Virus record (IMG/VR): IMGVR_UViG_3300033571_004124
Location: 1-42,140 of that record
Reading direction: 5' to 3' (one strand)
Length of the DNA stretch: 42,140 nt
Source of the DNA: a virus
Shown here: in pieces, positions 7,174 to 36,517 of the stretch
How positions within the stretch are numbered: position 1 is the first letter of the stretch
Layout: every line of letters begins with the position of its first letter
Position numbers and translations under genes: made by a program
Notes under the pieces: model-generated
The model's input: only the letters and a program-made list of their open reading frames with translations
The model's database searches: none
Told to the model about the DNA's origin: nothing

Positions 7174-8450
7174 TGCAACCAACCGAAGTTATTCGTTTTG
7201 CTGGAGACGTTTCTGTACGAAAGGCAGAAATAGTTTCTCAAAATGGATTATATCAAGATATTAGACCACAAATACTGAACATTCATGTATATGAAGATCT
7301 TTTCAGTCCATTTATATCTGGTATAGTTATTGTTAAAGAATCTTTAGATTTAATTAACTTGTTTCCATTAGTTGGTGAAGAAATTCTAAACTTAGAAATA
7401 TCTACTCCTTCTTTACCAAAATCATTTCGTGGTGAATTTCACATTTACAAATTATCCGAAAGAGAAGTATTAGGAGATAAAAATGTAGTTTATACACTAC
7501 ACTTTATATCCAAAGAAGCTGTTATAGATTTAAACAAAAAGATTAGTAGAGGTTTTGGTGGTAAAATATCTGACATTGCTACTACCATAATGAGAGAACC
7601 TAATATTGGCTTAGAAACTATAAAAAACATTTTAGTTGAACCGACTTCCAACTCAACAAAATATGTTTCTAACTTTTGGTCACCTGTTAAAAATATAAAC
7701 TATCTTTGCGATAATGCTGTTAATACAAATGGATCTCCTTCTTTTTTATTTTTTGAAAACAGAGAAGGATTTAATTTTATTTCACTAGAAACTCTTTATA
7801 CTCCTGATGTTTTACAAACATTTGTGAATGACAAATACTCACGAGATACAAGAGCAGGTATTGGTAGTATTAAAAATATAGACGAAGATTTTAAAAGAAT
7901 TTTAGAAATTAGAGTTCCTGTAGCTTTTGATTACATGGACAGAGTTAGAAATGGTATGAACGCTTCTAATATAATTTTATATGATTTTACTAAAAAACAA
8001 TATTCTGTTAAAACATTTGATATGTTAAGAAACTATGACGAACAAAGGCATTTAAATCAGTTTCCATTAATATCAAATAATAACATTCGTAGAGGTGATT
8101 CTTTATTAATTAACGCTACAAAATATTTTGGTAATTTTAATGGTTTCGGAGATGTTACCAATACCAACATATTACAAAAAAGAATATCATTATTAAAACA
8201 AGCCGAAGCTGTAAAAATTGAAATTGTTGTACCAGGTAGAGTTGATTATACGGTAGGTAAAAAGGTTACATTAAATTTACCTAGACTTGAACCAACCACT
8301 AAATTAGATAATGATATTCAAGATAAAATCTTTTCTGGCACATATTTAATTGCAGCAATAAATCATTATATTGATAAAGAAAAACATGAGTGCCATATGG
8401 AATTGATCAAAGATTCGTTTATTATTAATTTGAATAACAGGAAAAAATAA
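7173..8450 (+). CDS. 27: gp27 baseplate hub subunit
   Basis: 425 aa (T4 gp27 is 391). The N-terminal part (LNIHVYEDLFSPFISGIVIV, then LINLFPLVGEEIL) and the tube-like beta domains with a late VPGRVDYTVGKKVTLNLP fit the gp27/Mu gp44-type hub fold, which forms a trimeric ring joining the tube to the gp5 spike. Near the C-terminus, FSGTYLIAAINHYIDKEKHE followed by CHMELIKDSF is typical of such hubs. Its position directly before gp5 agrees. TAATG couplings on both sides should keep hub subunits in balance with gp53 and gp5. Confidence 0.85.
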   Translation: MQPTEVIRFAGDVSVRKAEIVSQNGLYQDIRPQILNIHVYEDLFSPFISGIVIVKESLDLINLFPLVGEEILNLEISTPSLPKSFRGEFHIYKLSEREVLGDKNVVYTLHFISKEAVIDLNKKISRGFGGKISDIATTIMREPNIGLETIKNILVEPTSNSTKYVSNFWSPVKNINYLCDNAVNTNGSPSFLFFENREGFNFISLETLYTPDVLQTFVNDKYSRDTRAGIGSIKNIDEDFKRILEIRVPVAFDYMDRVRNGMNASNIILYDFTKKQYSVKTFDMLRNYDEQRHLNQFPLISNNNIRRGDSLLINATKYFGNFNGFGDVTNTNILQKRISLLKQAEAVKIEIVVPGRVDYTVGKKVTLNLPRLEPTTKLDNDIQDKIFSGTYLIAAINHYIDKEKHECHMELIKDSFIINLNNRKK

Positions 8451-11400
8451 TGAAGTTTTATACGGGTGTAGTTGAAAATAGAATTGATCCATTAAATCTT
8501 GGTCGTTGCCAAGTTCGGGTTGTTGGATTACACACGCATGATAAAACTCAGTTACCAACAGAAGATTTACCGTGGGCATATCCGCTACAACCTGTTACCT
8601 CTGCTGCAATGAACGGTATTGGACACACACCAGTTGGTCCAGTTGAAGGTACTTCTGTAATTATTGTTTTTGCAGATGAAGATTTACAACAACCAATTAT
8701 GATGGGAACTATTGGTGGTATATCTTCTGCTCCTGGTGTAATCGCTGATAATAATAATCCTCCATCAACATCATCTAAAACATCAGACATTCGATTAAGA
8801 ACTATTGTTGGTCCAGTGACTGGCAATAGACTAACCTTTGTTGATAACGTATTTGGTTCTAAAAATTTAACAAGTAATTTAAAACCAAATATGAAAGTTC
8901 TTGGATATGATATTCCAAAAGAAACTTTTATTGTTTCTATTAATAATGGAACTCAAATTACTATTAGTAACACTGTTACTAGTTATGGTGAAAATATAAT
9001 TTCGTTTGATGATGCTCCAACCAATTTAAACGCTGTCACTCAAAGCGCAGAGCAAGGATTCTTAGTAGATAGTTCTGGTCAACCTGTGTTATCTGGATCG
9101 GGTGAATCAATTACAACTGGTTCTGCTTCAGCAGCGTCAAATAATACAATTCCAACAGTACCCCCACCAAAATCTACAAGAGATCCAAAGATGTCTTCAG
9201 ATGGAATCAAAGCACTTATAGCTGCTTGCGATAAAGTTGGATTAACCACCAAAGAACAAAAGTGTGCTTTGTTGGGTATTGCTGGTGGAGAATCTAGGTG
9301 GATACCCCAGCTGGAAAGTTTTAATTACACTCCAAACAGAATGAAGCAAATTTATTCTTTTGCGACTGAAGATGATATTTCTCGTTACTCTAACGCTTCC
9401 AAAAAGGGATTGACTAGACAAGAATTTTTCTCATGGGCATATGGTCCAACTAAACGTGGTAAAGGATTTCTTGGTAATCAAACAGATGCTGATGGAGGAA
9501 AGTATTTTGGACGTGGATTCATTCAGCTAACTGGTAAAGCAAACTATGAAAGATACCAAAGATTAGCAAACGCTAATGGATTGAATATTGATATTGTTAA
9601 TAACCCAGATTCTTTAGATGATGATATTAACGTATCTGCTTTAGTTGCAGCATTGTATATTAAAGATCGTGTGAAGGGTGTTAATCCAAACGCACATCCA
9701 GATTTTTTCTTGGCTGCTAAAAAGGCAGTCGGTATTAATTCACCAGACATTGCAGCAATTAAAGAAAATTATTATGAATATTTTTATGGTAAACCTGGTA
9801 CTGGTGGACAAGAAAAGGATGCTTCTGCGCCAATACCTGAACCACCTAAAGATAACGATTTCACCACACCAAAACCTTCTCAACAAAGTGTTGATAGTGG
9901 CTCATCAACTTTAGGCTTTAGAGATCCAAATAATAAGTATCCATTAAAATCATATTTGGGTGAAGCCGATACAAATCGTTTAGCCAGAGGTGTTATTGAA
10001 GGTACAGTGGTGACTAAAAAAGATTCCACTAGAGTTTTAGGTGTACCAAAGGCATTAATGCAAGGTGACTGGGATCAACCAAAAGCACCATATGGAGCAA
10101 AGTATCCATTTAATAAAGTTTTTGAATCTGAATCAGGACACATCCAAGAATGGGATGACACTCCAGGGCAAGAAAGAACTCACACATTCCATAGAGCTGG
10201 GACTTATACAGAAGTTGATCCAAACGGAACTCAAGTAAACTATATTGTTGGCGACAATTTTATTCTAATGGAAAGAAATGGTTGCGTTCATGTTTCTGGA
10301 GAATGCAATATTACTGTTGATGGTAATACAAACATCTATGCTAGAAGCGACGCTAACATTCAAGTTGAACAAAATGCTACAGTAGAAGTTGGTAATAATT
10401 TACACATAGGTGTAGCCACAGATACAACACTGGCTGTTGGTGGAGACATGAAGATTAAAGTTCTTGGTAATCTTGATATTGCAGCTGCTAATATTACCAA
10501 TCGTTCAATGGGTTTTATTAACAACCAAGCTGTTGGTGATATCAATATTAAATCAGATAATTATAATCAGCAAGCAGCTGGTAATAGCAATATAAAAGCA
10601 AACGCATTAAATCAAGAATCTACTGGAGAGATGAACATTAAATCTGGTGGTGCAATGAATGTTGATTACTCACAAGGTAATTTTGGTAATGGTGCTGGTG
10701 GTGCGGGAGACGCTGTAGATGTTGAAGAATTTGAATTGGTTCCTCCACCGTTGGGCGACCCATTACTTCCAATAGTACCATTTTTAGTTGCACCAGAAAG
10801 ACAGTTTGAAGAAAGAACTGCAGCTGAAACCCCTGATGATTTTGAAACACCTGAAGGTAGAGCCATTTCTGCTGAACAAGCCAGAACAGAAGGTGTCGTT
10901 GGCGCACCTCCTCCTGTCGCTGCAGAAGAAGCTCCAGCTGCGAGCGGTGGGGCTGGAGACAGAATTTCTGTTGACTGTAAAATTATCTACAATACAAATA
11001 ACTTTACAAACGACTATAGACTATCCAGAAACTTTACACTGGGTATGTTAATTGACGGTGGTGTTAATGGTAGACATAAACTAGTTGATCAAATTCTTAA
11101 AGAGACTAGAGATTCAGCTGAACGAACATTCACCAGACAAGAAATAGTGTGCAACTTGGCTCACGTGGCTCAAAACATCCTCGAGCCAATGCTACAAATA
11201 TTACCAGGAGGTATTGGTGGATATAAAAATCAATGGAAAATTAACTCTGGTTACAGATTAAAGGGTGTAGTGCCAAACGAGTCTGCGATTTCAGACCACT
11301 GTAAAGGTCGTGCAGTAGATATCGGTTTGATAATCCCAGATAAATATAACAAAACTTATCAATTGATTCAGCAAGCTGAAAGAATCATAGCTTATGATCA

Positions 11401-11575
11401 ATTAATCCTTGAATATCGTTTTCCAGATTCTGTTTGGATTCACGCTTCGTTTAATCCAAATAGTGGTAGAAATATGGCATTTACTATGGTTAATGATAAA
11501 ACATTTAAACGTAACAATAGGGGTGTCCCAGAAGGTTATGTATTAGTTGAAAATATACCACCAAAGAGTGCATAA
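8450..11575 (+). CDS. 5: gp5 baseplate spike with GH19 lysozyme and C-terminal M15-type peptidase
   Basis: 1041 aa (T4 gp5 is 575). Domains in order: an OB fold (1-95; YTGVVENRIDPLNLGRCQVR, GTSVIIVFADEDLQQPIMMG), a spacer, a GH19 muramidase/chitinase-like domain (about 250-445), a gp5 C-terminal linker (490-595, with HIQEWDDTPGQERTHTFHRA), a triple beta-helix of short V-x-V/I repeats (600-745), a Pro/Ala/Glu-rich linker (750-835), and an LAS/M15-type peptidase domain (835-1010). Likely GH19 catalytic residues are Glu281 (GGES) and Glu289; YFGRGFIQLTGKANY (352-366) is the family signature. M15 motifs are SDHCKGRAVD (His950, Asp957), Glu988 and WIHASF (His998). The protein trimerises on gp27, pierces the outer membrane and cuts peptidoglycan. 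T4 has a GH24 lysozyme in place of GH19 and no peptidase. It has TAATG junctions at both ends. Confidence 0.93.
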   Translation: MKFYTGVVENRIDPLNLGRCQVRVVGLHTHDKTQLPTEDLPWAYPLQPVTSAAMNGIGHTPVGPVEGTSVIIVFADEDLQQPIMMGTIGGISSAPGVIADNNNPPSTSSKTSDIRLRTIVGPVTGNRLTFVDNVFGSKNLTSNLKPNMKVLGYDIPKETFIVSINNGTQITISNTVTSYGENIISFDDAPTNLNAVTQSAEQGFLVDSSGQPVLSGSGESITTGSASAASNNTIPTVPPPKSTRDPKMSSDGIKALIAACDKVGLTTKEQKCALLGIAGGESRWIPQLESFNYTPNRMKQIYSFATEDDISRYSNASKKGLTRQEFFSWAYGPTKRGKGFLGNQTDADGGKYFGRGFIQLTGKANYERYQRLANANGLNIDIVNNPDSLDDDINVSALVAALYIKDRVKGVNPNAHPDFFLAAKKAVGINSPDIAAIKENYYEYFYGKPGTGGQEKDASAPIPEPPKDNDFTTPKPSQQSVDSGSSTLGFRDPNNKYPLKSYLGEADTNRLARGVIEGTVVTKKDSTRVLGVPKALMQGDWDQPKAPYGAKYPFNKVFESESGHIQEWDDTPGQERTHTFHRAGTYTEVDPNGTQVNYIVGDNFILMERNGCVHVSGECNITVDGNTNIYARSDANIQVEQNATVEVGNNLHIGVATDTTLAVGGDMKIKVLGNLDIAAANITNRSMGFINNQAVGDINIKSDNYNQQAAGNSNIKANALNQESTGEMNIKSGGAMNVDYSQGNFGNGAGGAGDAVDVEEFELVPPPLGDPLLPIVPFLVAPERQFEERTAAETPDDFETPEGRAISAEQARTEGVVGAPPPVAAEEAPAASGGAGDRISVDCKIIYNTNNFTNDYRLSRNFTLGMLIDGGVNGRHKLVDQILKETRDSAERTFTRQEIVCNLAHVAQNILEPMLQILPGGIGGYKNQWKINSGYRLKGVVPNESAISDHCKGRAVDIGLIIPDKYNKTYQLIQQAERIIAYDQLILEYRFPDSVWIHASFNPNSGRNMAFTMVNDKTFKRNNRGVPEGYVLVENIPPKSA

Positions 11576-24981: not shown

Positions 24982-25205
24982 TGGATTATTTAAAAGTTGA
25001 TGGTAATGATAACCTTGTTAGAGACACCTCTAGCAAGGCTATTATAAATACTAATGTTAAAGAATATTATAATTATGTTGAAAAACGAAATATGATGTTA
25101 AAACAAAAACAAGAGCTTGAAAAACAATCGCAAGAAATAAACAATCTTAAAAAAGATATGTCTGAAATTAAAGACATGCTTTCTATCTTAATAGGTAAGA
25201 AATAA
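24978..25205 (+). CDS. small coiled-coil protein between structural genes
   Basis: 75 aa from ATG 24978, which overlaps the upstream stop as ATGA; a second ATG follows at 24981. The N-terminus MDYLKVDGNDNLVRDTSSKA followed by IINTNVKEYYNYV resembles a small conserved protein found among the structural genes of marine T4-like phages. Residues about 33-70 form a predicted coiled coil (KQKQELEKQSQEINNLKKDM). The role is unknown; a chaperone or connector for the large flanking fibre proteins would fit. It ends in a TAATG junction with the repeat-rich fibre gene, so all three genes are coupled. Confidence 0.75.
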   Translation: MMDYLKVDGNDNLVRDTSSKAIINTNVKEYYNYVEKRNMMLKQKQELEKQSQEINNLKKDMSEIKDMLSILIGKK

Positions 25206-27958
25206 TGGCGCTACAAACACCAGTTGAATTAGTTCCACAAACTGATACATTCGATCAGTGGAGACAAAAAACCAATAATGTAATAGATCAGTCTAATCAG
25301 ACTGTATTAGATGTTGGGGATTTAGCGACTCTGACTACATCTACACAAGACAATATAGTAGATGCTATTAATGCATTAAATGCCAATAGAACATTGACAT
25401 TAACGGGAGATGTTGCAGGTAACGTAACCTTTGATGGTGAAGGTGCAATATTATTAAACACCACTGTTGTTTATGACTCTGTCGTTCTTGGGGTTGACAC
25501 TGTTGGTGAATATGTTTCTGGTATTAATTCTGCCCTTAGAACGATCGATGTAGAACTGTGCCAACCTGGAGTTGTTTTTTGTGTTAAGTTATTAACACCA
25601 GGTTCTGGCTACCATTATCCTACTACAACTGCTACAATTTCTGCTCCAGAAGAAGTTGGTGGTGTGACTGCCACAGTAGATGTTATTCTTTCTGGTTCAC
25701 CAGTAACTTCTATAGCTTTAACGTATGGCGGTACTGGTTATTTTATTGATAATACAACTATTTCTATTTCCCCACCAGATATTCCAACTGGAACTCAAGC
25801 AACAGCATCTTTAACGCTTGGCGGTGGCATTGTTAATACTTTATTTTTAACTAATGCTGGTTCTGGCTATACTAACGCTTCTGTTTCTTTTTCTAATCCA
25901 GATGTAGTTGGTGGAACACTTCCTACTGCATCAGTCACATTTTCTGGTGCTGCAGTAACTTTATTAAATTTAGACAATGGTGGTTCTGGTTATACTAACG
26001 CTTCTGTTTCTTTTTCTGCACCAGAAAAGGCAGGTGGAGTTACTGCTACTGCAACAGCGCAACTATCTGGCGCAGGTGTTACTCAATTAAATTTAATCGA
26101 TGGTGGTTCTGGATATACCGTTGGTACAAATACTGTTATTATTTCTAATCCAGAAGTAGCTGGTGGTGTTGCTGCAACCGCATCTGTTAATCTGTCTGGG
26201 GCTTCTGTTCTAGACATTAACATGACTAATAATGGCGCTGCTTACACTACTGCTAACGTTGCAATTTCTGCTCCAGACGTAGTTGGTGGTACACAGGCAA
26301 CTGGCCAAGCTGTATTTTCTGGCTCTGGTGTAGTTGAGTGTTATGTAGGTTTAATCGGTGGCTCTGGTTATCATGCTGCTACAACTACATTAACATTCTC
26401 TGCGCCACAAAAACCAGGTGGAATTACAGCGACTGGATATCCAGTTATCGTTGATGGTGTTATTACTGAAGTTGTTGTTACCAATTCAGGTTCTGGATAT
26501 TTAATCGCACCAACTGTTAATATTGTAGATACAGATCCCGTACCAGGAACAGGCGCAGAGATCATTACTATTATTGGTAAATTTACAATTATAGATGTTA
26601 CAATTACCAACCCTGGATCTGGTTATCTAAATCCACCAACAGTTACTATTACTGGAGATGGTGTACAAGCTGCTGCATCTTCTACAATTGGCACTTCTAG
26701 TATTACTTCTATTAATTTACTCACTGCAGGTTCTGGGTATCTTTCTGCACCAACGGTTACAATAACAGGTAATGGAATTGGTGCTAATGCTACTGCTACA
26801 GTTGGAACCTCTTCTGTAACTGGTTTAACCCTAACAAATGCAGGTTCTGGTTATTTAAACCCACCAACAGTTACCATTAACGGTGATGGAACTAATGCTA
26901 CAGCAAGCGCAACAATCGGTACATTTAGTATCGACACAATTACATTAGATACTGCTGGATCTGGATATCTGTATAATCCAACAGTCACCATTAACGGTAA
27001 TGGAACTAATGCTACAGCAAGCGCAACCATAGGTGGTTCTACTGTTGCTACTGTTACATTAGACGAAGCTGGCTCTGGATATTTAATCCCACCAACGGTA
27101 ACTATTAGTGGTAGTGGAACAGACGCTACTGTTATTTCAACAATAGGAACCAGCACCGTAACTGATATTATTATCACCAATGGTGGTTCTGGATATTTAA
27201 CTCAACCTACTCTTACAATTGTAGATTCAAATGCAGTTCCAGGAATTGGTGCTACTGGTTTAGCAGTTGTTTCTGATGAAACTTCAAAAGTTAATGTTGA
27301 TCTACCAGAAACTGGTGTTGCTGCTGGTACATATGGTCTTAATACCTCTGCGTTTAAAGTCCCAACATTTACAGTAGATCAATATGGTAGATTAACTAAT
27401 GCGTCTGAATTTACAATTCCTACAACTGGTGTTGTAGCTGGTACGTATGGTCTAAACAACAGTGTTCCTAAAATACCAACTGTTACCGTAGATGCATATG
27501 GTAGAGTTACTTCTGCAACAGATTTTGATATTCCTACAACTGGTGTTACTGCTGGTACGTATGGTAATGCGACTACTATTCCTAGTGTTACTGTTGATGC
27601 TTATGGTAGAGTTACTTCGGTCACTACCAATAATGTTAGCATCGTTGAAACCGTATTTGCTATTGGTAACTCGGGCACTTCAGTAACTCCTGACTGGAAC
27701 AACGGCACTGTACAAACAGTTACTGCAAATAATAATTTCACGTTAAACATTCCATCTAATATGCCTGTTGGTTCTTCTATTGGCATTATAATTACACAAG
27801 ATGGTGCTGGAAATAGACTTATTTCTCCAGTGGCATCATACAAATTTGCCTCTGGATTAAAAACATTAAGCACAGCTGCAAATAGTATAGATTTTATTAA
27901 TATATTTAATGCGGGGGGTGGGGTTTATTTGGCTGCATTAACCAGAGGTTATGCCTAA
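25205..27958 (+). CDS. repeat-rich tail fibre protein (14 GSGY repeats)
   Basis: 917 aa. The N-terminus (LVPQTDTFDQWRQKTNNVID) is a common anchor motif of marine T4-like fibres. It continues with a NANRTLTLTGDVAGNVTFDG block. Residues about 127-689 are 14 tandem repeats of 38-44 aa, each with a (G/A)GSGY core, a T-V-x-I strand and a Gly-rich turn. Two sub-families are visible: the first seven have S/NP-(D/E)-V-x-GG, the last seven PPTVTI-x-G-x-G. Three GTYG...TVDxYGRxT repeats follow (about 700-805). The C-terminal tail (about 820-917) is a separate beta domain ending in GGGVYLAALTRGYA. This is most likely an extended beta-helical or beta-solenoid adhesin. It is coupled upstream by TAATG; the next ATG follows its stop directly. 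Confidence 0.85.
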   Translation: MALQTPVELVPQTDTFDQWRQKTNNVIDQSNQTVLDVGDLATLTTSTQDNIVDAINALNANRTLTLTGDVAGNVTFDGEGAILLNTTVVYDSVVLGVDTVGEYVSGINSALRTIDVELCQPGVVFCVKLLTPGSGYHYPTTTATISAPEEVGGVTATVDVILSGSPVTSIALTYGGTGYFIDNTTISISPPDIPTGTQATASLTLGGGIVNTLFLTNAGSGYTNASVSFSNPDVVGGTLPTASVTFSGAAVTLLNLDNGGSGYTNASVSFSAPEKAGGVTATATAQLSGAGVTQLNLIDGGSGYTVGTNTVIISNPEVAGGVAATASVNLSGASVLDINMTNNGAAYTTANVAISAPDVVGGTQATGQAVFSGSGVVECYVGLIGGSGYHAATTTLTFSAPQKPGGITATGYPVIVDGVITEVVVTNSGSGYLIAPTVNIVDTDPVPGTGAEIITIIGKFTIIDVTITNPGSGYLNPPTVTITGDGVQAAASSTIGTSSITSINLLTAGSGYLSAPTVTITGNGIGANATATVGTSSVTGLTLTNAGSGYLNPPTVTINGDGTNATASATIGTFSIDTITLDTAGSGYLYNPTVTINGNGTNATASATIGGSTVATVTLDEAGSGYLIPPTVTISGSGTDATVISTIGTSTVTDIIITNGGSGYLTQPTLTIVDSNAVPGIGATGLAVVSDETSKVNVDLPETGVAAGTYGLNTSAFKVPTFTVDQYGRLTNASEFTIPTTGVVAGTYGLNNSVPKIPTVTVDAYGRVTSATDFDIPTTGVTAGTYGNATTIPSVTVDAYGRVTSVTTNNVSIVETVFAIGNSGTSVTPDWNNGTVQTVTANNNFTLNIPSNMPVGSSIGIIITQDGAGNRLISPVASYKFASGLKTLSTAANSIDFINIFNAGGGVYLAALTRGYA
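25585..27270 (+). repeat. 14-copy tandem coding repeat (GSGY module)
   Basis: Tandem in-frame repeats of 114-132 bases, each encoding a GSGY beta module. Neighbouring copies are sometimes almost identical at the DNA level. The 44-base block at 26873 recurs at 26987 (114 bases later) with two mismatches. The 36-base block at 25859 recurs at 25982 (123 bases later) with one. This suggests recent copying by slippage or unequal recombination. A few copies have diverged (copy 6 reads GAAY). Confidence 0.88.
27300..27630 (+). repeat. three GTYG...YGR coding repeats
   Basis: Three in-frame copies of about 100-115 bases encoding TGV-x-AGTYG followed by P-x-x-TVD-x-YGRxT. The pattern recurs twice in the fibre at 30048 (VGTYGSSTSVPVITVNGKG, GGTYGSSTAIPVITVNTKG). 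It is likely a trimeric beta-prism or collar motif of phage fibres. DNA identity between copies 2 and 3 is high over ACTGGTGTT...GCTGGTACGTATGG. Confidence 0.8.
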
Positions 27959-28678
27959 ATGCCATTCGCTTCTAGTAGATTAGGTTTTTTTAATGTTGTT
28001 CAAGAAGACCGAACTGAATTAAAATCAAAAAATGTTTTGATCGTTTATGATTTGAATGGACGTCCTGGGGTTTATGATCCCCCAAATCCAAATCCAGCGA
28101 CTTTGGCTGCAAATATATCTGCTCGTGAATCTGCTTTAGGTTTTATTCCCACAACAATAACATCATACGCTTCTTTAGTAGCGACTGACATTAGTCAATT
28201 TGCTCATGTTTGGGATGTTGGATATGATACGTTAATGACATCTGGCGCTGCATCAAAATATAAAACATACCTTCAATCTGGTGGTGCTATATTTTTACTC
28301 GGTGAGAATGGATTGTTTGTTAGTAGAAATAATACGCTTGATAATTTTATTGAGATTGATATGGGCGGTGGAGTTTGCTCTACGAGTGGAGGAAATTTAA
28401 ATGCTATTGTAGCATCTACAGTAGCAACACAATTTTTATTAGCTAACAACGATAATAGCGTAACGTTTAATAATCCAGGTGTTTGGACTGCAATTGGAAA
28501 TGGTACGGCTATGGCTACATCTGGCTTTGGTATTCACGCTGCAGTATGGAAATTTAATTCGCTGTCTCAAGCCCCAACAGCAGCAATATGCTCTGTGTTG
28601 GATATTAACTTTTTGGTTGCTCCAGATTTTGATAGCAATTTTGTCGATAATGTAAGTATTGTATTAAATAAAGCATAA
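27959..28678 (+). CDS. fibre-associated protein with MPFAS-RLGF tag and a Rossmann/amidotransferase-like body
   Basis: 239 aa. The N-terminus MPFASSRLGFF is shared with the next gene, which otherwise differs. The body starts with an alternating alpha/beta pattern (KNVLIVYDLNGRPGVYDP, FAHVWDVGYDTL, KTYLQSGGAIFLLGENGLFV) that resembles class-I glutamine-amidotransferase-like or ThuA-like folds, without a Cys nucleophile where expected. Cys residues lie in GGGVCSTSGG and AAICSVLD. The C-terminal part looks beta-rich. Such a fold in a fibre cluster is unusual; a carbohydrate-binding or virion-decorating role is inferred. The ATG follows the previous stop directly; the next ATG starts after a one-base gap. 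Confidence 0.65.
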   Translation: MPFASSRLGFFNVVQEDRTELKSKNVLIVYDLNGRPGVYDPPNPNPATLAANISARESALGFIPTTITSYASLVATDISQFAHVWDVGYDTLMTSGAASKYKTYLQSGGAIFLLGENGLFVSRNNTLDNFIEIDMGGGVCSTSGGNLNAIVASTVATQFLLANNDNSVTFNNPGVWTAIGNGTAMATSGFGIHAAVWKFNSLSQAPTAAICSVLDINFLVAPDFDSNFVDNVSIVLNKA

Positions 28679-28679
28679 T

Positions 28680-29534
28680 ATGCCATTCGCTTCTAACAGA
28701 TTAGGATTTTGGGGTGGTGGTCCTCCACCAGAGTTTACAATACAACCAGTGACTTCCAATGTAGGTGAAGGTGAAACTGTTTCTTTTGTAATTAATACCA
28801 AATACTATTACATGCCCAATCTTTATTGGACAGTTAGAGTGATCTCTGGAAATGTTAACGCAAGTGATATAGTTTCTGGTGAAATAAGTGGAACTTCTAA
28901 TATAACTTTAACAGGTGATATAGGTGGTTCTTCTTTTACCCTTTCTATGATTCAAGATGGGGTTGTTGAGGGGAATGAAACTTTTGTTGTAGATTTAAGA
29001 ACTGATAGCATTAATGGAACAGTTGTGGCAACTAGTTCTGTAGTAACTATTAGTGATTTTATCCCATTAAGTCTTTCTTGGGCAACTAGCCAGAGCAATA
29101 TTATATCAGGAATTCCTGGTGGATGGGTTATTGAAAACGATGGTAGAAGTATACGTTTCGTAATTCAAAACTCTGCGAACTGTGGTGGTCCTAATGGAAG
29201 TATTCAATCAGGTTCTGCAGTTGCAACTATTGTTACAGGATCTCAAGGTTATAGATTTAATCCATCTCTTTCTGGTCTCGGCGAGGCACAAGATGGTGGT
29301 TTTGAAAATATGACGTTAAACCTTAATGGTACAAATATAGTAAGTGCTACTTCTGCTGGGGGTCGGCAAGGATGCGCAGCAAATATACCAGTTATACAAT
29401 CTATATTAGTTTCACCACCATATACATTACAGCCTAATACTACAAATACGTTTACGTTATCATTTACAACTCAAGATCCATTTTTTCACGTTAACGCATT
29501 TTACTTGTTAAATTTAACCTTTGAACTATTATAA
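28680..29534 (+). CDS. fibre-associated protein with the MPFAS-RLGF tag and a Calx-beta-like domain
   Basis: 284 aa. It begins MPFASNRLGFWGGGPPPEFT, repeating the tag of the preceding gene followed by a Gly/Pro hinge. Residues about 25-127 resemble a Calx-beta domain (VGEGETVSFVIN, then VVEGNETFVVDLRTDS, ending SSVVTISDF), an Ig-like fold often found in adhesins, usually calcium-binding through acidic residues. Residues 130-284 form a second beta-rich domain with three cysteines (NCGGPNG, RQGCAANIP). It is probably an accessory fibre or decorative adhesin. Only one base separates it from the upstream stop. Confidence 0.65.
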   Translation: MPFASNRLGFWGGGPPPEFTIQPVTSNVGEGETVSFVINTKYYYMPNLYWTVRVISGNVNASDIVSGEISGTSNITLTGDIGGSSFTLSMIQDGVVEGNETFVVDLRTDSINGTVVATSSVVTISDFIPLSLSWATSQSNIISGIPGGWVIENDGRSIRFVIQNSANCGGPNGSIQSGSAVATIVTGSQGYRFNPSLSGLGEAQDGGFENMTLNLNGTNIVSATSAGGRQGCAANIPVIQSILVSPPYTLQPNTTNTFTLSFTTQDPFFHVNAFYLLNLTFELL

Positions 29535-29574: not shown

Positions 29575-30033
<459 letters not shown>

Positions 30034-30047
30034 CAGGAGAAATAAAA

Positions 30048-32321
30048 ATGGCATCAATAATTAGAATTAAACGATCGCTGACTGCTGGAGATCCAGCAGT
30101 TCTATCAGCAGGCGAATTAGCCTACTCTGCTGCCGACTATAACACAGTCGCTGGTGGCGGTAGACTTTATATTGGTATCGGCACTGAGTCTGGTGGTGGC
30201 GACGCAGCATCACATTTAATTATTGGTGGTAAATATTTTACTGACAAATTAGATCACACTCCAGGTATTCTAACTGCATCGTCTGCTTTAATTGTTGACG
30301 CAGACAGTAAAATTGATAACTTACTGGTTGATAATTTACAGCTAAATGGTAATACAATTAGCTCTACAAACAACAATGGTAATATTACATTAGACCCAAA
30401 TGGTACTGGTTTAGTTGAAATTATTGGTGACCTTACTGTAACTGGTACGATTAATGCTGACATTGCAGCTGACTCTGCTGCTAAATGGACTACTGCCAGA
30501 GATCTATCATTAACAGGTGATGCTACTGCTACTCTTACTGCTGTTGATGGCACAGCAAACGTATCAGCTGAGTTAATATTAGCCACTGTTAATACTAATG
30601 TAGGAACATACGGTTCTTCTACATCTGTTCCAGTTATTACAGTTAATGGTAAAGGTTTAATTACTGGAGTTTCTACACAGTCTATTTCTACTACTTTAAC
30701 AGTAGCAGATGAATATAGTGCTACTGCACAAATTTCATTGGCTGAAGACACACTTTCGATCGTTGGTGGTCAAGGTATTAATACAATCATCATCGGTGGT
30801 CAGCCTACTGTAACTATTAGCGCTACTGATGCGACTGAAACTGAAAAGGGTATTGCATCGTTTAATGGTGATGAATTTAGCGTAAATTCTGGTGAAGTTA
30901 CTTTGCAAATGCAAGGTGGGCATGCTGGAGGAACATATGGTTCATCTACAGCAATTCCAGTAATTACTGTTAATACTAAAGGTATTGTTACTGGAATAAG
31001 CACAGAAAATATTAGTACTTCGTTTGATATTTTTGGTAATACTGGTTTCGATACATTTAACACTGGCGAAGATTTAACATTTACTGGCTCTGGTGCAATT
31101 AATACTGCTGTTACTGACAACACAGTTACAATTTCTGTTGATACTGCTACTACATCTGAGCTTGGTGTTGCTTCTTTTAGTCAATTATCTTTTGATGTAA
31201 CTGATGGTGTTGTAAGTATTAAGGCTGGTGGTGTATCTAATTCACAATTAGAGAATAACAAGATTACAATTGGTACCACAGATATTTCTCTTGGTGATAC
31301 CGCATTAGTTTTAGAGGGTTTAGATCGTATCAATGTTGATAACATTGAGATAACAAATAACGAAATACGTTCTACAGACACTGACGGTGTTATATCTTTA
31401 AACCCTGATGGCGACGGATATATTTCTGTTAACAGTTCTTATATTAAAAATTTATTAGATCCACAAGACCCACAGGACGCTGCTACTAAAGCCTACGTAG
31501 ACAATGCTGTTACAGGTCTAACTTGGAAAAACTCAGCGCATTTATTAGCAACTACAAACGTGGCGTTGACTGGTAGTACAGGTACATTGGTTATTGATAG
31601 TCACGCACCATTATTTTCTGGTGATGTTGGATATAGAATTTTATTAATTGGTCAGACAACTGACAGCGAAAATGGTATTTACGTATATAACGAAACTGGT
31701 GGTACATATACATTAACTAGACCAGTAGACGCAAATAGCTATCAAGAATTAATCGGTGCAGCCATATTCATTAAAGATGGTGCATTATACGCTAATACTG
31801 GTTGGGTACAATCTAATCACACTATTACTAATTTCACAAATCAAGACTGGGTACAGTTTAGTGGTGCTGGAGCATATTCAGCAGGTGATGGTTTATCACT
31901 CGATGGAACAGAGTTTAGTGTTAATGTTGCTACCAATGGTGGAATCGAGATTGTTGCCGATAGCTTACAGTTAAAGCACACAATCGCAGGCGACGGTTTA
32001 ACCATAACAAATGGTGTTCTAGATGTTGTTGGTACTGCAAATAGAATTACTGTTGTCGCAGATGGTGTAGATATTGCATCAACTTATGTTGGACAGTCAT
32101 CTATTACCACGTTAGGTACTATTACTTCTGGTACATGGGAAGCCGACACGATCGCTGTTAACAGAGGTGGTACTGGTTTATCTTCTTACGCTAATGGCGA
32201 TTTATTAGTCGGTAATGTGTTAGGATCTCTGTCCACGCTTCATGTTGCCGCAAATGGTAAAGTTTTACAGTCAAATGGCACAACATTAGTTTACGGCGAC
32301 GTAGATGGTGGCACGTACTAA
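30048..32321 (+). CDS. tail fibre protein with Mtd-like N-terminus
   Basis: 757 aa from ATG 30048, chosen because it has a strong Shine-Dalgarno (AGGAGA); upstream in-frame codons overlap the previous gene. The N-terminus (IRIKRSLTAGDPAVLSAGEL, AYSA, GGGRLYIGIG) resembles the N-terminal attachment domain of phage tropism determinants and cyanophage fibres. The middle has beta repeats including two GTYGSST motifs (about residues 186 and 301). Around 465-490 there is LLDPQDPQDAATKAYVDNAV, a common fibre helix-turn before the distal domain. The distal part (NGIYVYNETGGTYTLTRPVD) continues to a RGGTGLSSYANGDLLVG element and ends in a Gly-rich tail. It is a likely receptor-binding fibre. Confidence 0.85.
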   Translation: MASIIRIKRSLTAGDPAVLSAGELAYSAADYNTVAGGGRLYIGIGTESGGGDAASHLIIGGKYFTDKLDHTPGILTASSALIVDADSKIDNLLVDNLQLNGNTISSTNNNGNITLDPNGTGLVEIIGDLTVTGTINADIAADSAAKWTTARDLSLTGDATATLTAVDGTANVSAELILATVNTNVGTYGSSTSVPVITVNGKGLITGVSTQSISTTLTVADEYSATAQISLAEDTLSIVGGQGINTIIIGGQPTVTISATDATETEKGIASFNGDEFSVNSGEVTLQMQGGHAGGTYGSSTAIPVITVNTKGIVTGISTENISTSFDIFGNTGFDTFNTGEDLTFTGSGAINTAVTDNTVTISVDTATTSELGVASFSQLSFDVTDGVVSIKAGGVSNSQLENNKITIGTTDISLGDTALVLEGLDRINVDNIEITNNEIRSTDTDGVISLNPDGDGYISVNSSYIKNLLDPQDPQDAATKAYVDNAVTGLTWKNSAHLLATTNVALTGSTGTLVIDSHAPLFSGDVGYRILLIGQTTDSENGIYVYNETGGTYTLTRPVDANSYQELIGAAIFIKDGALYANTGWVQSNHTITNFTNQDWVQFSGAGAYSAGDGLSLDGTEFSVNVATNGGIEIVADSLQLKHTIAGDGLTITNGVLDVVGTANRITVVADGVDIASTYVGQSSITTLGTITSGTWEADTIAVNRGGTGLSSYANGDLLVGNVLGSLSTLHVAANGKVLQSNGTTLVYGDVDGGTY

Positions 32322-32377: not shown

Positions 32378-33085
32378 ATGGCAACGAAAGTTCTTTTAAA
32401 GAAATCATCTGTTGCGGGCAAAGTTCCAGCAACTAATGATTTAGATTATGGTGAACTTGCCCTCAACTACGCAGACGGCAAGTTATATTTTAAAGATTCT
32501 ACAAATGCGGTAAAGCATTTTATAGAGTCATCACAATCGTCTGCGCCATTAAGTATAGATGACTTAACTGATGTTGATACTACTACATCACCTGCTGTAT
32601 TAAACCAAGCACTAGTTTGGGATGGCACTAATTGGGTTCCTGGAACACCGTCTTCTAGCAGTATCATTATTGAAGATACTGAGACTTTATCCAGTAGTAA
32701 TCCGAGTCAAATTGTTGATACTTATGATAAAACCATTTATCGCACAGCTAAATATTTGATACAAGCAATTTATGGCGAAGAGGTGCATGCCACTGAAGTT
32801 ACAATTACGCACAATGATGTTGCAGCTTTTATTAATACATACGGAACGATATATACAGGATCAGCTTCTTTAATCACAGTTAGTGCTACGGTTGATTCAA
32901 CGAGTGTTTATTTAAAAGTATCCCCAGCGAACGCTAATACTGTTATAGATTTCACAAGAATTTCTATTACTGCAAGAACATTAAGTGCACTAAATCCTCT
33001 ATTATCGCTTAGTGATTTACAAATACAAACATTACCAACAATTGATCTGCAAACAGATAGTTACCCGACTACTGATTTAAATTGA
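32378..33085 (+). CDS. short tail fibre-like protein with Mtd-like N-terminus
   Basis: 235 aa. The N-terminus (TKVLLKKSSVAGKVPATNDL followed by DYGELALNYADGKLYFK) is a clear example of the GELA...LYFK attachment motif also seen in the fibres at 30048 and 33119. It continues with PLSIDDLTDVDTTTSPAVLN and ALVWDGTNWVPGTP, a common fibre spacer. Residues about 100-200 form a beta domain (TAKYLIQAIYGEEVHATEVT) of the kind found in cyanophage fibres. The C-terminal stretch contains LLSLSDLQIQTLPTIDLQTD. It is short for a complete fibre and may be an adaptor or short fibre. A late promoter for the next gene follows immediately. Confidence 0.75.
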   Translation: MATKVLLKKSSVAGKVPATNDLDYGELALNYADGKLYFKDSTNAVKHFIESSQSSAPLSIDDLTDVDTTTSPAVLNQALVWDGTNWVPGTPSSSSIIIEDTETLSSSNPSQIVDTYDKTIYRTAKYLIQAIYGEEVHATEVTITHNDVAAFINTYGTIYTGSASLITVSATVDSTSVYLKVSPANANTVIDFTRISITARTLSALNPLLSLSDLQIQTLPTIDLQTDSYPTTDLN

Positions 33086-33118: not shown

Positions 33119-36100
33119 ATGCCAACCGTATTAAAATTTAGAAGAGGTAATACAGCAACATCTAATGCATTTACTGGTGCAGAGGGTGAACTATTTGTTG
33201 ATACTACAAAGGATACGCTAGTTATCCATGATGGGGTGACACTTGGCGGAAAACCCTTAGCTACAGAATCTTATGTTGTAAGTGCTATTAGTGGAAAGGC
33301 AAATTCCTCTAGCTTAGCCACAGTAGCAACTTCTGGTTCATATAACGATTTAAGTAATAAGCCATCATTGTTCTCTGGTTCATATAACGACCTAACGAAC
33401 AAACCTACGATTCCAACTGTCCCAACGAATGTTTCTGCGTTTAATAATGACGCAAACTATGCTACAACTACGCAATTAAGCACTAAACAAAATACACTAG
33501 TCTCTGGTGATAATATTAAATCTATTAATGGACAAAGTCTTCTTGGGACTGGTAATTTAACTATAACTGGTGATGGTAGTGTATTAGACACTTCAATTTT
33601 TGCGACCAAGACAGATCTATTAATTTTAGATTCAGACGATATTGACGAAGGCTTAACTAATCAATATTATAAAGATTCTAAAGTAGTTACATTATTTAAT
33701 CACCAAGATCACACAAACATCTCATTTGTTTATGAAGATGGTGTGATTAAAGCTAGTGCTGAAGGTGGTGGTGGAATTATTCCTCCAACAGAAGCATCAT
33801 ATGAAAACTTAGCCGTTACAACCGCTACACAGTTTATTCCAACTGCAACCGTTGAGGTCGATAATCAATACGATTTTTCTAGTCAAGGTTGGCAATCAAA
33901 TAACACTAAGTACTCATTTAGGCACATGTATCCAGCTTGGATGAATTGGATTGCAGATTCTTATATTCAGTGGCTGCCTAATCCAGATGCTTTAAGCAAT
34001 GAAATTTTACGTGCACAATATAAAAATAAAAATTATCTTTTAATAGGTAATAGTAATGTTAATGATATATCACAATCCCCACTAGGACAAAATAAAATTA
34101 ATGTGGGCGATACTGTAAATATAACAATTAGAGCTGTTAATTCTGGTAATCAAATTGATACATTTACTGCTCAAACTAAGGTGACTATAGCACCGTTTAC
34201 GATGAATGATTATCAAAATTTTTATGATAATTTTAATGATCCAGCAACTGGCTTTAGCTTTGCCAATAATACCGCAAAATTTTATGTATTAGCAATTGAT
34301 TGGATTAAATTGTCTGATTTTTCAGTAGGTCAATCTTTTGGTGCACCAATATATGATCCAGGTTGGCTATTCACAGGAAATGGTGGTGATGGTAATTTCT
34401 TTTCGTCTGCTAGTTATTTTGGTGACAGGGGCTATGATGCAAGTGCGCAGTATTTAAGATGGGAGTATATTGGTGCTAACACTATAAACGTAGGTTATGG
34501 TCAAATGGGTCTTGTTACAATGGACATCGTCACCTCGCCTGCATACTTAGCGCAATTTTCTCAAGGTAATTGGTCATCTGTAAAACAAAATATTAATGCT
34601 TTAGCGTATGGTAGCGCTTTACCATATACATCAATTAGCGCTTCCATTTATGAGGATTCCACAAGAAGATTAAAAATTGGAACAACCAATTTAGGATTAG
34701 CTGCGCAGACGCAAATTAAGAGATATATTGGCTTAGGAAATACGCCAATTGTGTCAATTGGCCAATTAGAAGGTTATGAAACACCTACTACTAAGACTCT
34801 ATCATTTACAGGGCAGTTAGCTAAACGATTAGCTGATGGATCTGATAATAATTATGCTACTATTACTGATGTAAATAATCAAATACCTGATTGGGTTGGT
34901 ATAGGTGAACAAACTTCTGCATTTAGTACTAGCAATTTTATAAGAGGTAGTAGCACTGGACCAGTTTGGTCAGCAGTAGATTTAAGTACTGTATTAACTG
35001 GTGGCAATGCCGCCAATCAAAACCTTTTTATAACTAGTACAACTGATCACTCATTTAATAGTAATGGAATTATTACTAATGCAGCTATACTCAGTCATGG
35101 TGATATTGCATCTAGAAAAACACTTATAGCCCAAGATATTATTTCTAGAAATAATATAACTACTACTAACACAGTTAAAGCAAAAACAGTTGAAGTTGAT
35201 ACTATTAAAGTAAATTCTTCTTCAAATATTACTTTATCTGCAACGATTAATCAAACTGGGGCAGGAGCACACTCAGGAGACGCAAACTACAATGATGTAA
35301 AAGTTTTATTAAATTCTAGTCCAACTGGTAAAAACACTCTAACGCAAACATATTCAGGAACTGCGTTTAGCATAAACAGTACTTTCTTTAGTTCTTTTAC
35401 AACCTCCACCTCCCCGAGAATTGATCTGTATCAGGGGTCAAATAGTACATCTTGGAATAATTTTAAAACTTTTATTAACACACAACGAAATTTATCTAAT
35501 ATTAGTAATAGAAGATTTAATTTAAAATTAACTGTGAATAACACACCAATAGATGTTGATGTTATAATAGATTATATAAATGACTTCGGCTCTTGGATGC
35601 AATTGTATGTTAGAGATTTTATTGGAGACAACAAAGGTTTAATATTTACTTCAAATAGAACTTTAACTAGCTCTGATACAATTTCTATTAGTGACGAGTA
35701 TACTAATTATGCTTTATTGGATAAATCTTCAAATAATGTAACTCCTGTTACTAATGGTACAGTGTTAATTGGTAAGGGAATTGTTCCGTCAGGGGGAACT
35801 CCAGGATACAGTTTTACCGTAGGAAACTCATCTAGCCATTACATAGAAATTCCTAATCCAACAAATGCAGACTTTGGTTCAGGTGATTGGACTGTTGACA
35901 CTTGGGTTGCGCTTGGCGATGCTGCGCATAGAATAACTAACGGATATTATGATAGAATGCCAATATTAAGAATTGGTTCGTCACCATCTGATTCAAACTC
36001 ATTTGATTTATTTCATCAATGGCCAGCGACAATGAGATTAAGATTAAATTCTACGACCTATCAAGTGAGCACGAGCTACTGGACTGGCGCTTATAATACT

Positions 36101-36517
36101 AATGGTGGGTGGACTCATGTTGCAGTATCTAAGAGTGGAACAACAATTACTGTTGTTATTGATGGTACTGAAGTTAAAACATTTACAGTTCCTGCAAACA
36201 GTTTAAATTTATCAGCAAATAAAATGTATTTGGTTGGACATTCATATTGGACACATTATTATAACTTTAGAGTTACACATGGAGTTGCTCGTTATAATGG
36301 AGCGTTTACACCTTCAGTCGGGCAACTTCCTTCTGGTGTAAATTTATACTCTGGTGCTACATCATCATCTGCAATCGCTGTAAATGGTGGTTTACAATTA
36401 AACAACGTAGAAGTTGCGCCCAACAACAACATCTCTGGTGGTTATATGTATGTCGAAAATGGTGCATTAAAATATAGAGGTTCAAATGGAACAGTTACAA
36501 CGATCGGAGCAGCATAA
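33119..36517 (+). CDS. large tail fibre with concanavalin/LamG-like distal domain
   Basis: 1132 aa. The N-terminus (TVLKFRRGNTATSNAFTGAE, GELFVDTTKDTLVIHDG) is the Mtd-like attachment motif. It is followed by two YNDL(S/T)NKP repeats (about 80-100), typical of fibre shafts, and by DDIDEGLTNQYYKDSKVVTL. The middle (about 220-560) is a unique aromatic-rich domain (FRHMYPAWMNWIADSYIQWL). Residues about 900-1075 look like a LamG/concanavalin jelly roll: SHYIEIPNPTNADFGSGDWT, VDTWVAL, GGWTHVAVSKSGTTITVVID, GTEV. This fold binds carbohydrates, fitting a host-receptor role. The C-terminus (LKYRGSNGTVTTIGAA) is a common fibre end. It couples to the next gene by TAATG. Confidence 0.85.
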   Translation: MPTVLKFRRGNTATSNAFTGAEGELFVDTTKDTLVIHDGVTLGGKPLATESYVVSAISGKANSSSLATVATSGSYNDLSNKPSLFSGSYNDLTNKPTIPTVPTNVSAFNNDANYATTTQLSTKQNTLVSGDNIKSINGQSLLGTGNLTITGDGSVLDTSIFATKTDLLILDSDDIDEGLTNQYYKDSKVVTLFNHQDHTNISFVYEDGVIKASAEGGGGIIPPTEASYENLAVTTATQFIPTATVEVDNQYDFSSQGWQSNNTKYSFRHMYPAWMNWIADSYIQWLPNPDALSNEILRAQYKNKNYLLIGNSNVNDISQSPLGQNKINVGDTVNITIRAVNSGNQIDTFTAQTKVTIAPFTMNDYQNFYDNFNDPATGFSFANNTAKFYVLAIDWIKLSDFSVGQSFGAPIYDPGWLFTGNGGDGNFFSSASYFGDRGYDASAQYLRWEYIGANTINVGYGQMGLVTMDIVTSPAYLAQFSQGNWSSVKQNINALAYGSALPYTSISASIYEDSTRRLKIGTTNLGLAAQTQIKRYIGLGNTPIVSIGQLEGYETPTTKTLSFTGQLAKRLADGSDNNYATITDVNNQIPDWVGIGEQTSAFSTSNFIRGSSTGPVWSAVDLSTVLTGGNAANQNLFITSTTDHSFNSNGIITNAAILSHGDIASRKTLIAQDIISRNNITTTNTVKAKTVEVDTIKVNSSSNITLSATINQTGAGAHSGDANYNDVKVLLNSSPTGKNTLTQTYSGTAFSINSTFFSSFTTSTSPRIDLYQGSNSTSWNNFKTFINTQRNLSNISNRRFNLKLTVNNTPIDVDVIIDYINDFGSWMQLYVRDFIGDNKGLIFTSNRTLTSSDTISISDEYTNYALLDKSSNNVTPVTNGTVLIGKGIVPSGGTPGYSFTVGNSSSHYIEIPNPTNADFGSGDWTVDTWVALGDAAHRITNGYYDRMPILRIGSSPSDSNSFDLFHQWPATMRLRLNSTTYQVSTSYWTGAYNTNGGWTHVAVSKSGTTITVVIDGTEVKTFTVPANSLNLSANKMYLVGHSYWTHYYNFRVTHGVARYNGAFTPSVGQLPSGVNLYSGATSSSAIAVNGGLQLNNVEVAPNNNISGGYMYVENGALKYRGSNGTVTTIGAA

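What the first reader, a model, noticed from the sequence alone, without database searches (positions are those of the whole stretch)
27959..28720. Two consecutive genes share one N-terminal tag but have unrelated bodies
The genes at 27959 and 28680 start almost identically (28 of the first 33 bases match; MPFAS-S/N-RLGF), then diverge completely: one looks like an alpha/beta amidotransferase-like fold, the other like a Calx-beta adhesin. The tag may be a virion docking peptide, or the conserved 5' end may be where cargo domains are exchanged by recombination.
Basis: partly seen in the sequence, partly recalled or inferred. Interest (0 to 1): 0.65.

Follow-up and report, generated by a model that had tools for sequence, protein, structure and literature searches.

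The report
Shared docking tag on fibre-tip proteins
Two neighbouring phage genes begin with the same ten-residue tag because, most likely, that tag is a plug that fixes exchangeable proteins to the end of a tail fibre, and related tags sit behind the same kind of fibre end in many other phages.

Summary
In detail: genes A (27959-28678) and B (28680-29534) share 28 of 33 starting bases (MPFAS[S/N]RLGF) and have unrelated bodies. The exact tag was not found elsewhere, but it belongs to a variable tag family. The key is the gene before them: the 917-aa fibre ends in a ~110-aa "knob". In scans for that knob, the next gene usually starts with a related tag on very different bodies. In fresh contigs, scored against a threshold fixed beforehand, 33 of 44 deduplicated loci passed versus 4 of 215 control genes, and all 4 lie behind a second knob fibre. 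Tag type co-varies with knob type. A contig of the same lineage (L016) carries gene A beside a different tagged partner, so cargo is exchanged. Gene A is predicted to have an amidotransferase-like fold with a disordered tag; the knob weakly resembles T4 gp9 / gp10-XD1 adaptor domains. Best reading: a short peptide plug joins interchangeable tip proteins to a fibre socket, working like T2/S16 gp38 but not a member. Two tagged genes behind one fibre were seen only in this lineage. Docking and virion presence are inferred, not shown.

The parts
25205..27958 (+). tail fibre, 917 aa, repeat shaft, directly upstream of the tagged genes
   Evidence: ORF; tail-fibre/baseplate/virion PHROG matches over the repeats
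27620..27955 (+). C-terminal knob of the fibre (proposed socket), ends ..KTLSTAANSIDFINIF..LTRGYA
   Evidence: alignments A3/A4; 285 viral-contig stretches encode relatives, best 80 kept; predicted beta domain, residues 20-111 mostly pLDDT>90; Foldseek/VIA matches to phage spike and adaptor domains
27959..27991 (+). tag A, MPFASSRLGFF (proposed plug)
   Evidence: passes the tag threshold against tags of other body clusters
27959..28678 (+). gene A, 239 aa, tag + linker + amidotransferase-like alpha/beta body without the expected catalytic Cys
   Evidence: homologues aligned in A5; model pLDDT 78, residues 1-21 <50; Foldseek to IFT52 N-domain, ThuA-like and GATase chains, E 7e-7 to 1e-3
28680..28712 (+). 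tag B, MPFASNRLGFW
   Evidence: top-scoring 'control' gene
28680..29534 (+). gene B, 284 aa, tag + Calx-beta/Ig-like beta body
   Evidence: sub-threshold Pfam matches; relative in L010, residues 17-207, 27% identity, E 3e-6

Best explanation
The tag is a short peptide plug and the fibre's C-terminal knob is its socket. The 917-aa fibre (a trimer, by analogy) exposes the knob at its far end. The first ~10 residues of the gene A and gene B products, disordered when free, bind that knob and so fix the variable body to the fibre tip, where it meets the host surface. Because only the tag touches the fibre, any body can be exchanged behind it by recombination. In this lineage two tagged proteins follow one fibre, so they probably share or compete for the same tips. 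Shown: the shared tag, its recurrence behind knob fibres, the exchange of bodies, the knob-tag covariation. Inferred: physical docking, tip location, receptor function, stoichiometry.
For: Next-gene N-termini behind the knob. Different-body pairs share the first 12 residues at score>=20 in 14.8% of 1349 pairs, controls 0.38% of 30303. 43 of 54 tags pass the 99% control threshold against tags of other body clusters. Prediction written first, then 33 of 44 deduplicated fresh loci pass (40 of 55 before deduplication; 61 fresh contigs in all) against 4 of 215 controls. All 4 of those lie directly behind another knob fibre. Knob-tag rho 0.20, 0 of 999 permutations reach it; with more loci 0.19, 0 of 499, while residues 21-32 give 0.05, 55 of 499. 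TTGY knobs: RLGF tag in 8 of 9; VTGF knobs: HR tag in 5 of 6. Fibre+tag pairs occur twice in L104, L141, L197, L216, L238. The tag persists where the gene does not touch the fibre gene: gene B behind gene A, and 130-160 nt away in L150, L164, L166. The free tag is disordered in the model. Bodies match LamG, glycine-rich, propeller, virion, baseplate and tail-fibre families.
Against: No binding, virion or complex-structure data. The knob+tag read-through model gives the tag part pLDDT 55-63, that is, no confident placement; a single chain cannot test a trimer. 4 of 55 tagged proteins match a PHROG labelled 'tail fiber assembly' (best E 4.2e-6), which fits a chaperone. 11 of 54 tags fail the threshold and 11 of 44 fresh ones. 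Of 10 phage-collection records with knob matches only DSL-LC06 (L180) has a clear tag; L181 and L182 fail the threshold and the other seven were only read by eye. Some knob fibres have no tagged neighbour in the stretch held (L201, L202). Covariation is modest, and adjacent genes co-descend. The knob fold match is middling.
Confidence: 0.7

Rival explanations
1. Tagged proteins are fibre-folding chaperones (like T4 gp38, Mu Tfa, Pam3 gp25): the tag binds the nascent knob, helps it trimerise, and the protein leaves or stays loosely.
For: Position directly behind the fibre gene is typical of chaperones (PMC9608196 and PMC10579305, passages read). 4 of 55 tagged proteins match a 'tail fiber assembly' PHROG.
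Against: Pam3 gp25 has a variable N-terminal and a conserved C-terminal domain; here the N-terminus is conserved and the rest varies. Bodies include LamG, propeller and baseplate/virion families, unlike one chaperone fold. Two different tagged proteins follow one fibre.
Confidence: 0.14
2. The conserved 5' end is a recombination junction or a translation-start element; the peptide itself has no role.
For: A and B share 7 of 8 synonymous codons (P 0.02). Across tag pairs codon sharing is 1.25 times expectation, knob 1.08, control stretch 0.95.
Against: In L016, L094 and L104 the paired tags share synonymous codons no more than expected. The tag is also kept where the gene does not touch the fibre gene. 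Tag type follows knob type.
Confidence: 0.08
3. The tag docks somewhere else on the virion (baseplate or another fibre), and its place behind knob fibres is only operon linkage.
For: No direct contact evidence; the window module holds several other fibre genes, and shared N-termini of other kinds are common in related modules.
Against: In L104, L141, L197, L216 and L238 a second knob fibre has its own tagged neighbour, and knob and tag types co-vary.
Confidence: 0.08

Closest known systems
gp38 tip adhesins of T2/S16/PP01 phages
   Same: The gp38 N-terminus fixes the protein to the C-terminal end of the gp37 fibre and the variable distal part meets the host (PMC6851490 and PMC12892980, passages); gene 38 next to gene 37 is recalled.
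   Different: S16 gp38 uses an attachment domain with three conserved Trp, and 113 N-terminal residues were swapped in the PP01/T2 chimera; here about 10 residues. gp38 has a polyglycine distal domain; here many unrelated bodies, and two per fibre in this lineage.
CBA120 branched tailspikes with T4 gp10-like XD domains
   Same: Modular N-termini let different receptor-binding proteins join one trimeric hub; the knob model aligns to TSP4 residues 79-180.
   Different: Those use whole folded domains; XD1 itself is described as a probable spacer in PMC8825819 (passages).
Pam3 gp25 / Mu Tfa / T4 gp38 fibre chaperones
   Same: Gene order fibre then partner.
   Different: Conserved C-terminal trimerising domain and variable N-terminus, the reverse of here (PMC9608196, passages).
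Class I glutamine amidotransferase fold (ThuA-like, IFT52 N-domain)
   Same: Predicted fold of the gene A body.
   Different: GEN is invariant where the catalytic Cys motif is expected (motif recalled; alignment).

Membership tests
T2/S16 gp38 tip adhesin | gene directly downstream of the distal fibre gene (recalled) | tested here: met
   gene A starts at the base after the fibre stop; that this fibre is the distal one is inferred
T2/S16 gp38 tip adhesin | polyglycine (glycine-rich motif) distal domain | tested here: not met
   no runs of glycine-rich motifs in A or B by reading; gene A predicted as an alpha/beta amidotransferase-like fold
T2/S16 gp38 tip adhesin | N-terminal attachment domain with three conserved Trp | tested here: not met
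   tag of about 10 residues, disordered in the model of A
T2/S16 gp38 tip adhesin | present at the fibre tip of the virion | not testable with these tools
   needs proteomics or microscopy
Fibre chaperone (Tfa / Pam3 gp25) | conserved C-terminal helical trimerisation domain, variable N-terminus | tested here: not met
   conservation lies at the N-terminus; bodies form 29 clusters in 98 proteins. Against this: 4 of 55 match a 'tail fiber assembly' PHROG
T4 gp9 / gp10 XD1-like adaptor domain (knob) | same fold | tested here: inconclusive
   VIA Z 8.2 to CpaA 6o38 (rmsd 2.5, 86 aligned), 8.1 to the Pa223 spike (2.9, 94), 7.0 to T4 gp9 (2.6, 87), 6.5 to CBA120 TSP4 (3.2, 86); Foldseek E<=0.001 only for the Pa223 spike; such Z can be a common arrangement
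Class I glutamine amidotransferase (gene A) | fold | tested here: met
   40 chains at E<=0.001, led by IFT52, ThuA-like and GATase chains; only one of five models was confident
Class I glutamine amidotransferase (gene A) | catalytic nucleophile Cys | tested here: not met
   G-E-N invariant in 12 homologues after the relevant strand; site placed by recall, no superposition
Calx-beta (gene B) | Pfam gathering score | tested here: not met
   12.8 bits, cut-off 27

The most novel reading that the evidence does not exclude
Knob and tag form a standard plug and socket spread across many uncultivated phages, and in this lineage one fibre type is loaded with two different tip proteins, so single virions carry mixed tips (or the population carries alternatives), giving several receptor specificities without changing the fibre gene.
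Probability: 0.35. Interest if true: 0.75.

Novelty: new variant of a known kind. Interest (0 to 1): 0.6.

Why it matters
If right, a ten-residue peptide explains how phages swap whole receptor-binding bodies without rebuilding the fibre. It gives a sequence rule (knob end, then tag) for finding unknown tip proteins in viral metagenomes, and the docking step can be tested with a tag-GFP fusion and an isolated knob. I found no description of it in the listings of seven literature searches, which is not proof of absence.

Tried and rejected
Exact tag pattern in viral contigs: 6 stretches. Five lie near the start of a metalloprotease-like protein (MPFAQ..R.GF, 12-15 residues inside the longest ORF) and one is a 17-codon frame; not related. 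tblastn of gene A in phages: none; gene B: 4 weak P-SSM2-type matches, E 0.4. A scan with gene A alone found no relative; with the L016 homologue added it found 8 loci. Knob scan of GTDB genomes: 48 pattern stretches, none confirmed. Knob against PDB sequences: nothing meaningful. Clustering of fibre shafts was useless (42 of 53 in one repeat-driven cluster), so I claim only that some shafts are collagen-like and others not. The regular expression for knobs is loose and marks some false fibres. Two scripts failed and were rerun in other form; the profile tag model named in the prediction was replaced by nearest-tag alignment scores before the fresh loci were scored.

Rows dropped before counts: first sample 80 loci + 3 phage records + window; L170 (no stop) and L138, L164, L165, L166, L171 (no gene found near) dropped, leaving 78, deduplicated to 56, of which 54 have the next gene within 20 nt (L147, L150 dropped). 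Fresh sample: 80 loci, 19 contigs already seen dropped, 61 left, 6 without an ATG within 20 nt, 55 left, deduplicated to 44. The best 80 of 285 and of 277 loci were what the tool kept. For the structure job on the knob I gave 32 other knobs of the 55 deduplicated ones other than the window's own.

Full report
Check. Genes A (27959-28678, 239 aa) and B (28680-29534, 284 aa) exist as described. Their first 33 bases match at 28 places, and the 30-base start pattern occurs only at these two places in the window. The bodies are unrelated by BLASTP.

Setting. The window is a virus record of 42140 bases with a T4-like baseplate and fibre module; its 2077-aa protein has relatives called VrlC or structural protein in cyanophages and pelagiphages. 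Gene A starts on the base after the stop of a 917-aa fibre; one base lies between the stop of A and the start of B.

Finding relatives. The exact tag found nothing related. But among 80 relatives of a downstream gene, L016 carries at the same place two tagged genes: MFIGGSRLGF.. (241 aa) and MPIGGAHFGF.. (243 aa). The second is a homologue of gene A (54% identity); the first is unrelated to B. A scan with both gene A sequences gave 8 loci. In six of the seven loci read, and in L016, the tagged gene or genes follow a fibre with one and the same C-terminal domain; the seventh, L017, is cut off before that point.

The knob. A scan with that C-terminal domain gave 285 confirmed stretches, best 80 kept. 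The next gene often begins with a related tag: MFGAARLNTL, MPIGATRLGY, MFSARGGF, MPLGATRLNF, MPFAARQGF, MNFGASRLGFW and others, usually overlapping the fibre stop by one base. The bodies form 24 clusters in 55 proteins.

Statistics. Different-body pairs share the first 12 residues far more often than control genes of the same loci (14.8% of 1349 against 0.38% of 30303 pairs; the highest of 200 random control sets reaches 1.0%). 43 of 54 tags exceed the 99% control threshold when compared only with tags of other body clusters. I wrote a prediction (at least 50% of fresh loci, at most 5% of controls) and scanned with other knobs: 33 of 44 deduplicated fresh loci pass (40 of 55 before deduplication; 61 fresh contigs), controls 4 of 215. 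All four passing controls lie directly behind another knob fibre, so they are probably tag genes too. Failures include a second tag type: VTGF knobs carry M..HR..L/F tags in 5 of 6.

Covariation. Knob similarity and tag similarity correlate among pairs with different bodies (rho 0.20, 0 of 999; 0.19, 0 of 499); residues 21-32 do not (0.05, 55 of 499). The effect is modest, and adjacency in DNA may account for part of it.

Unit structure. Fibre+tag pairs occur twice in L104, L141, L197, L216 and L238. Some knob fibres sit on collagen-like shafts, others on other shafts. So the conserved parts are the two that would meet: the fibre's end and the neighbour's start. Two tagged genes behind one fibre were seen only in the window, L107, L108 (=L016) and L109 (=L094), whose fibres start alike. 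There gene A is kept while its partner differs, which shows cargo exchange.

DNA or peptide. A and B share more synonymous codons than expected (7 of 8, P 0.02), but the pairs in L016, L094 and L104 do not. Over 269 tag pairs the ratio to expectation is 1.25 (knob 1.08, control stretch 0.95). These pairs were chosen for similar tags, and start regions may have odd codon use, so this is inconclusive. Recombination near the tag is likely; it does not by itself explain the residue conservation.

Structures. Gene A: mean pLDDT 78 (only one of five models was good), tag below 50; fold of the class I amidotransferase kind, with IFT52, ThuA-like and GATase chains, without the expected Cys (site by recall). 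Knob: pLDDT mostly above 90 for residues 20-111; it matches the Pa223 spike (Foldseek E 7e-6), and by VIA CpaA Z 8.2, Pa223 8.1, T4 gp9 7.0, CBA120 TSP4 6.5, StcE 5.9. PMC8825819 lists gp9, gp10, CpaA and StcE as relatives of the TSP4 XD1 domain (passages), much the same set as found here, so an XD1-like fold is plausible but not proven. The tag part of the read-through model is not confident.

Bodies. Of 55 tagged proteins, 15 match a glycine-rich Pfam domain, 8 LamG (ConA-like), one propeller models; PHROG labels include baseplate wedge, virion structural, tail fibre, and in 4 of 55 'tail fiber assembly'. Gene B itself matches nothing above a curated cut-off.

Named phages. Of 10 phage-collection records with knob matches, only Phage DSL-LC06 has a clear tag (MPLGATRLNF); the others have none or doubtful ones. 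The GTDB scan found no knob. So the system is so far seen mainly in uncultivated virus contigs.

Mechanism. The best reading is a peptide plug in a fibre-end socket, with exchangeable tip proteins. It works like T2/S16 gp38, whose N-terminus fixes it to gp37 (PMC6851490, PMC12892980, passages), but it lacks gp38's attachment domain and polyglycine fold. The chaperone reading remains open. All of this rests on sequence and predicted models; nothing shows binding or virion presence.

Noticed in passing
window 30048-32321, 32378-33085, 33119-36517; L018, L030, L035, L053, L072, L073, L078: A second, longer shared N-terminus (..KIKRS/RRGT..GELA.., Mtd_N match in the 33119 gene) heads several genes of the same module; in relatives up to three consecutive genes start MSKQVRFRRGTT or nearly so.
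   Followed up: no
window 29599-30033 and 30048-32321; L016 5719-8684; L010 9260-10869: Consecutive genes share a C-terminal end of the type ..D..GG[HT]Y (AGQF/AGTY in L010), a possible tail-end counterpart of the N-terminal tags.
   Followed up: no
L003 1216 and 1638; L006 4865, 6787, 7778: Neighbouring genes of another phage group share the start MK.LLENWRKF on proteins of different length.
   Followed up: no
window 8450-11575: 1041-aa baseplate hub/lysozyme-type protein with extra endolysin/chitinase-like matches inside.
   Followed up: no
L104, L141, L197, L216, L238: Two fibre+tagged-protein pairs in tandem in one contig.
   Followed up: partly
L206, L208, L221, L222, L224: A different tag type (M..HR..L/F) behind fibres ending LVTGF[AV].
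   Followed up: partly
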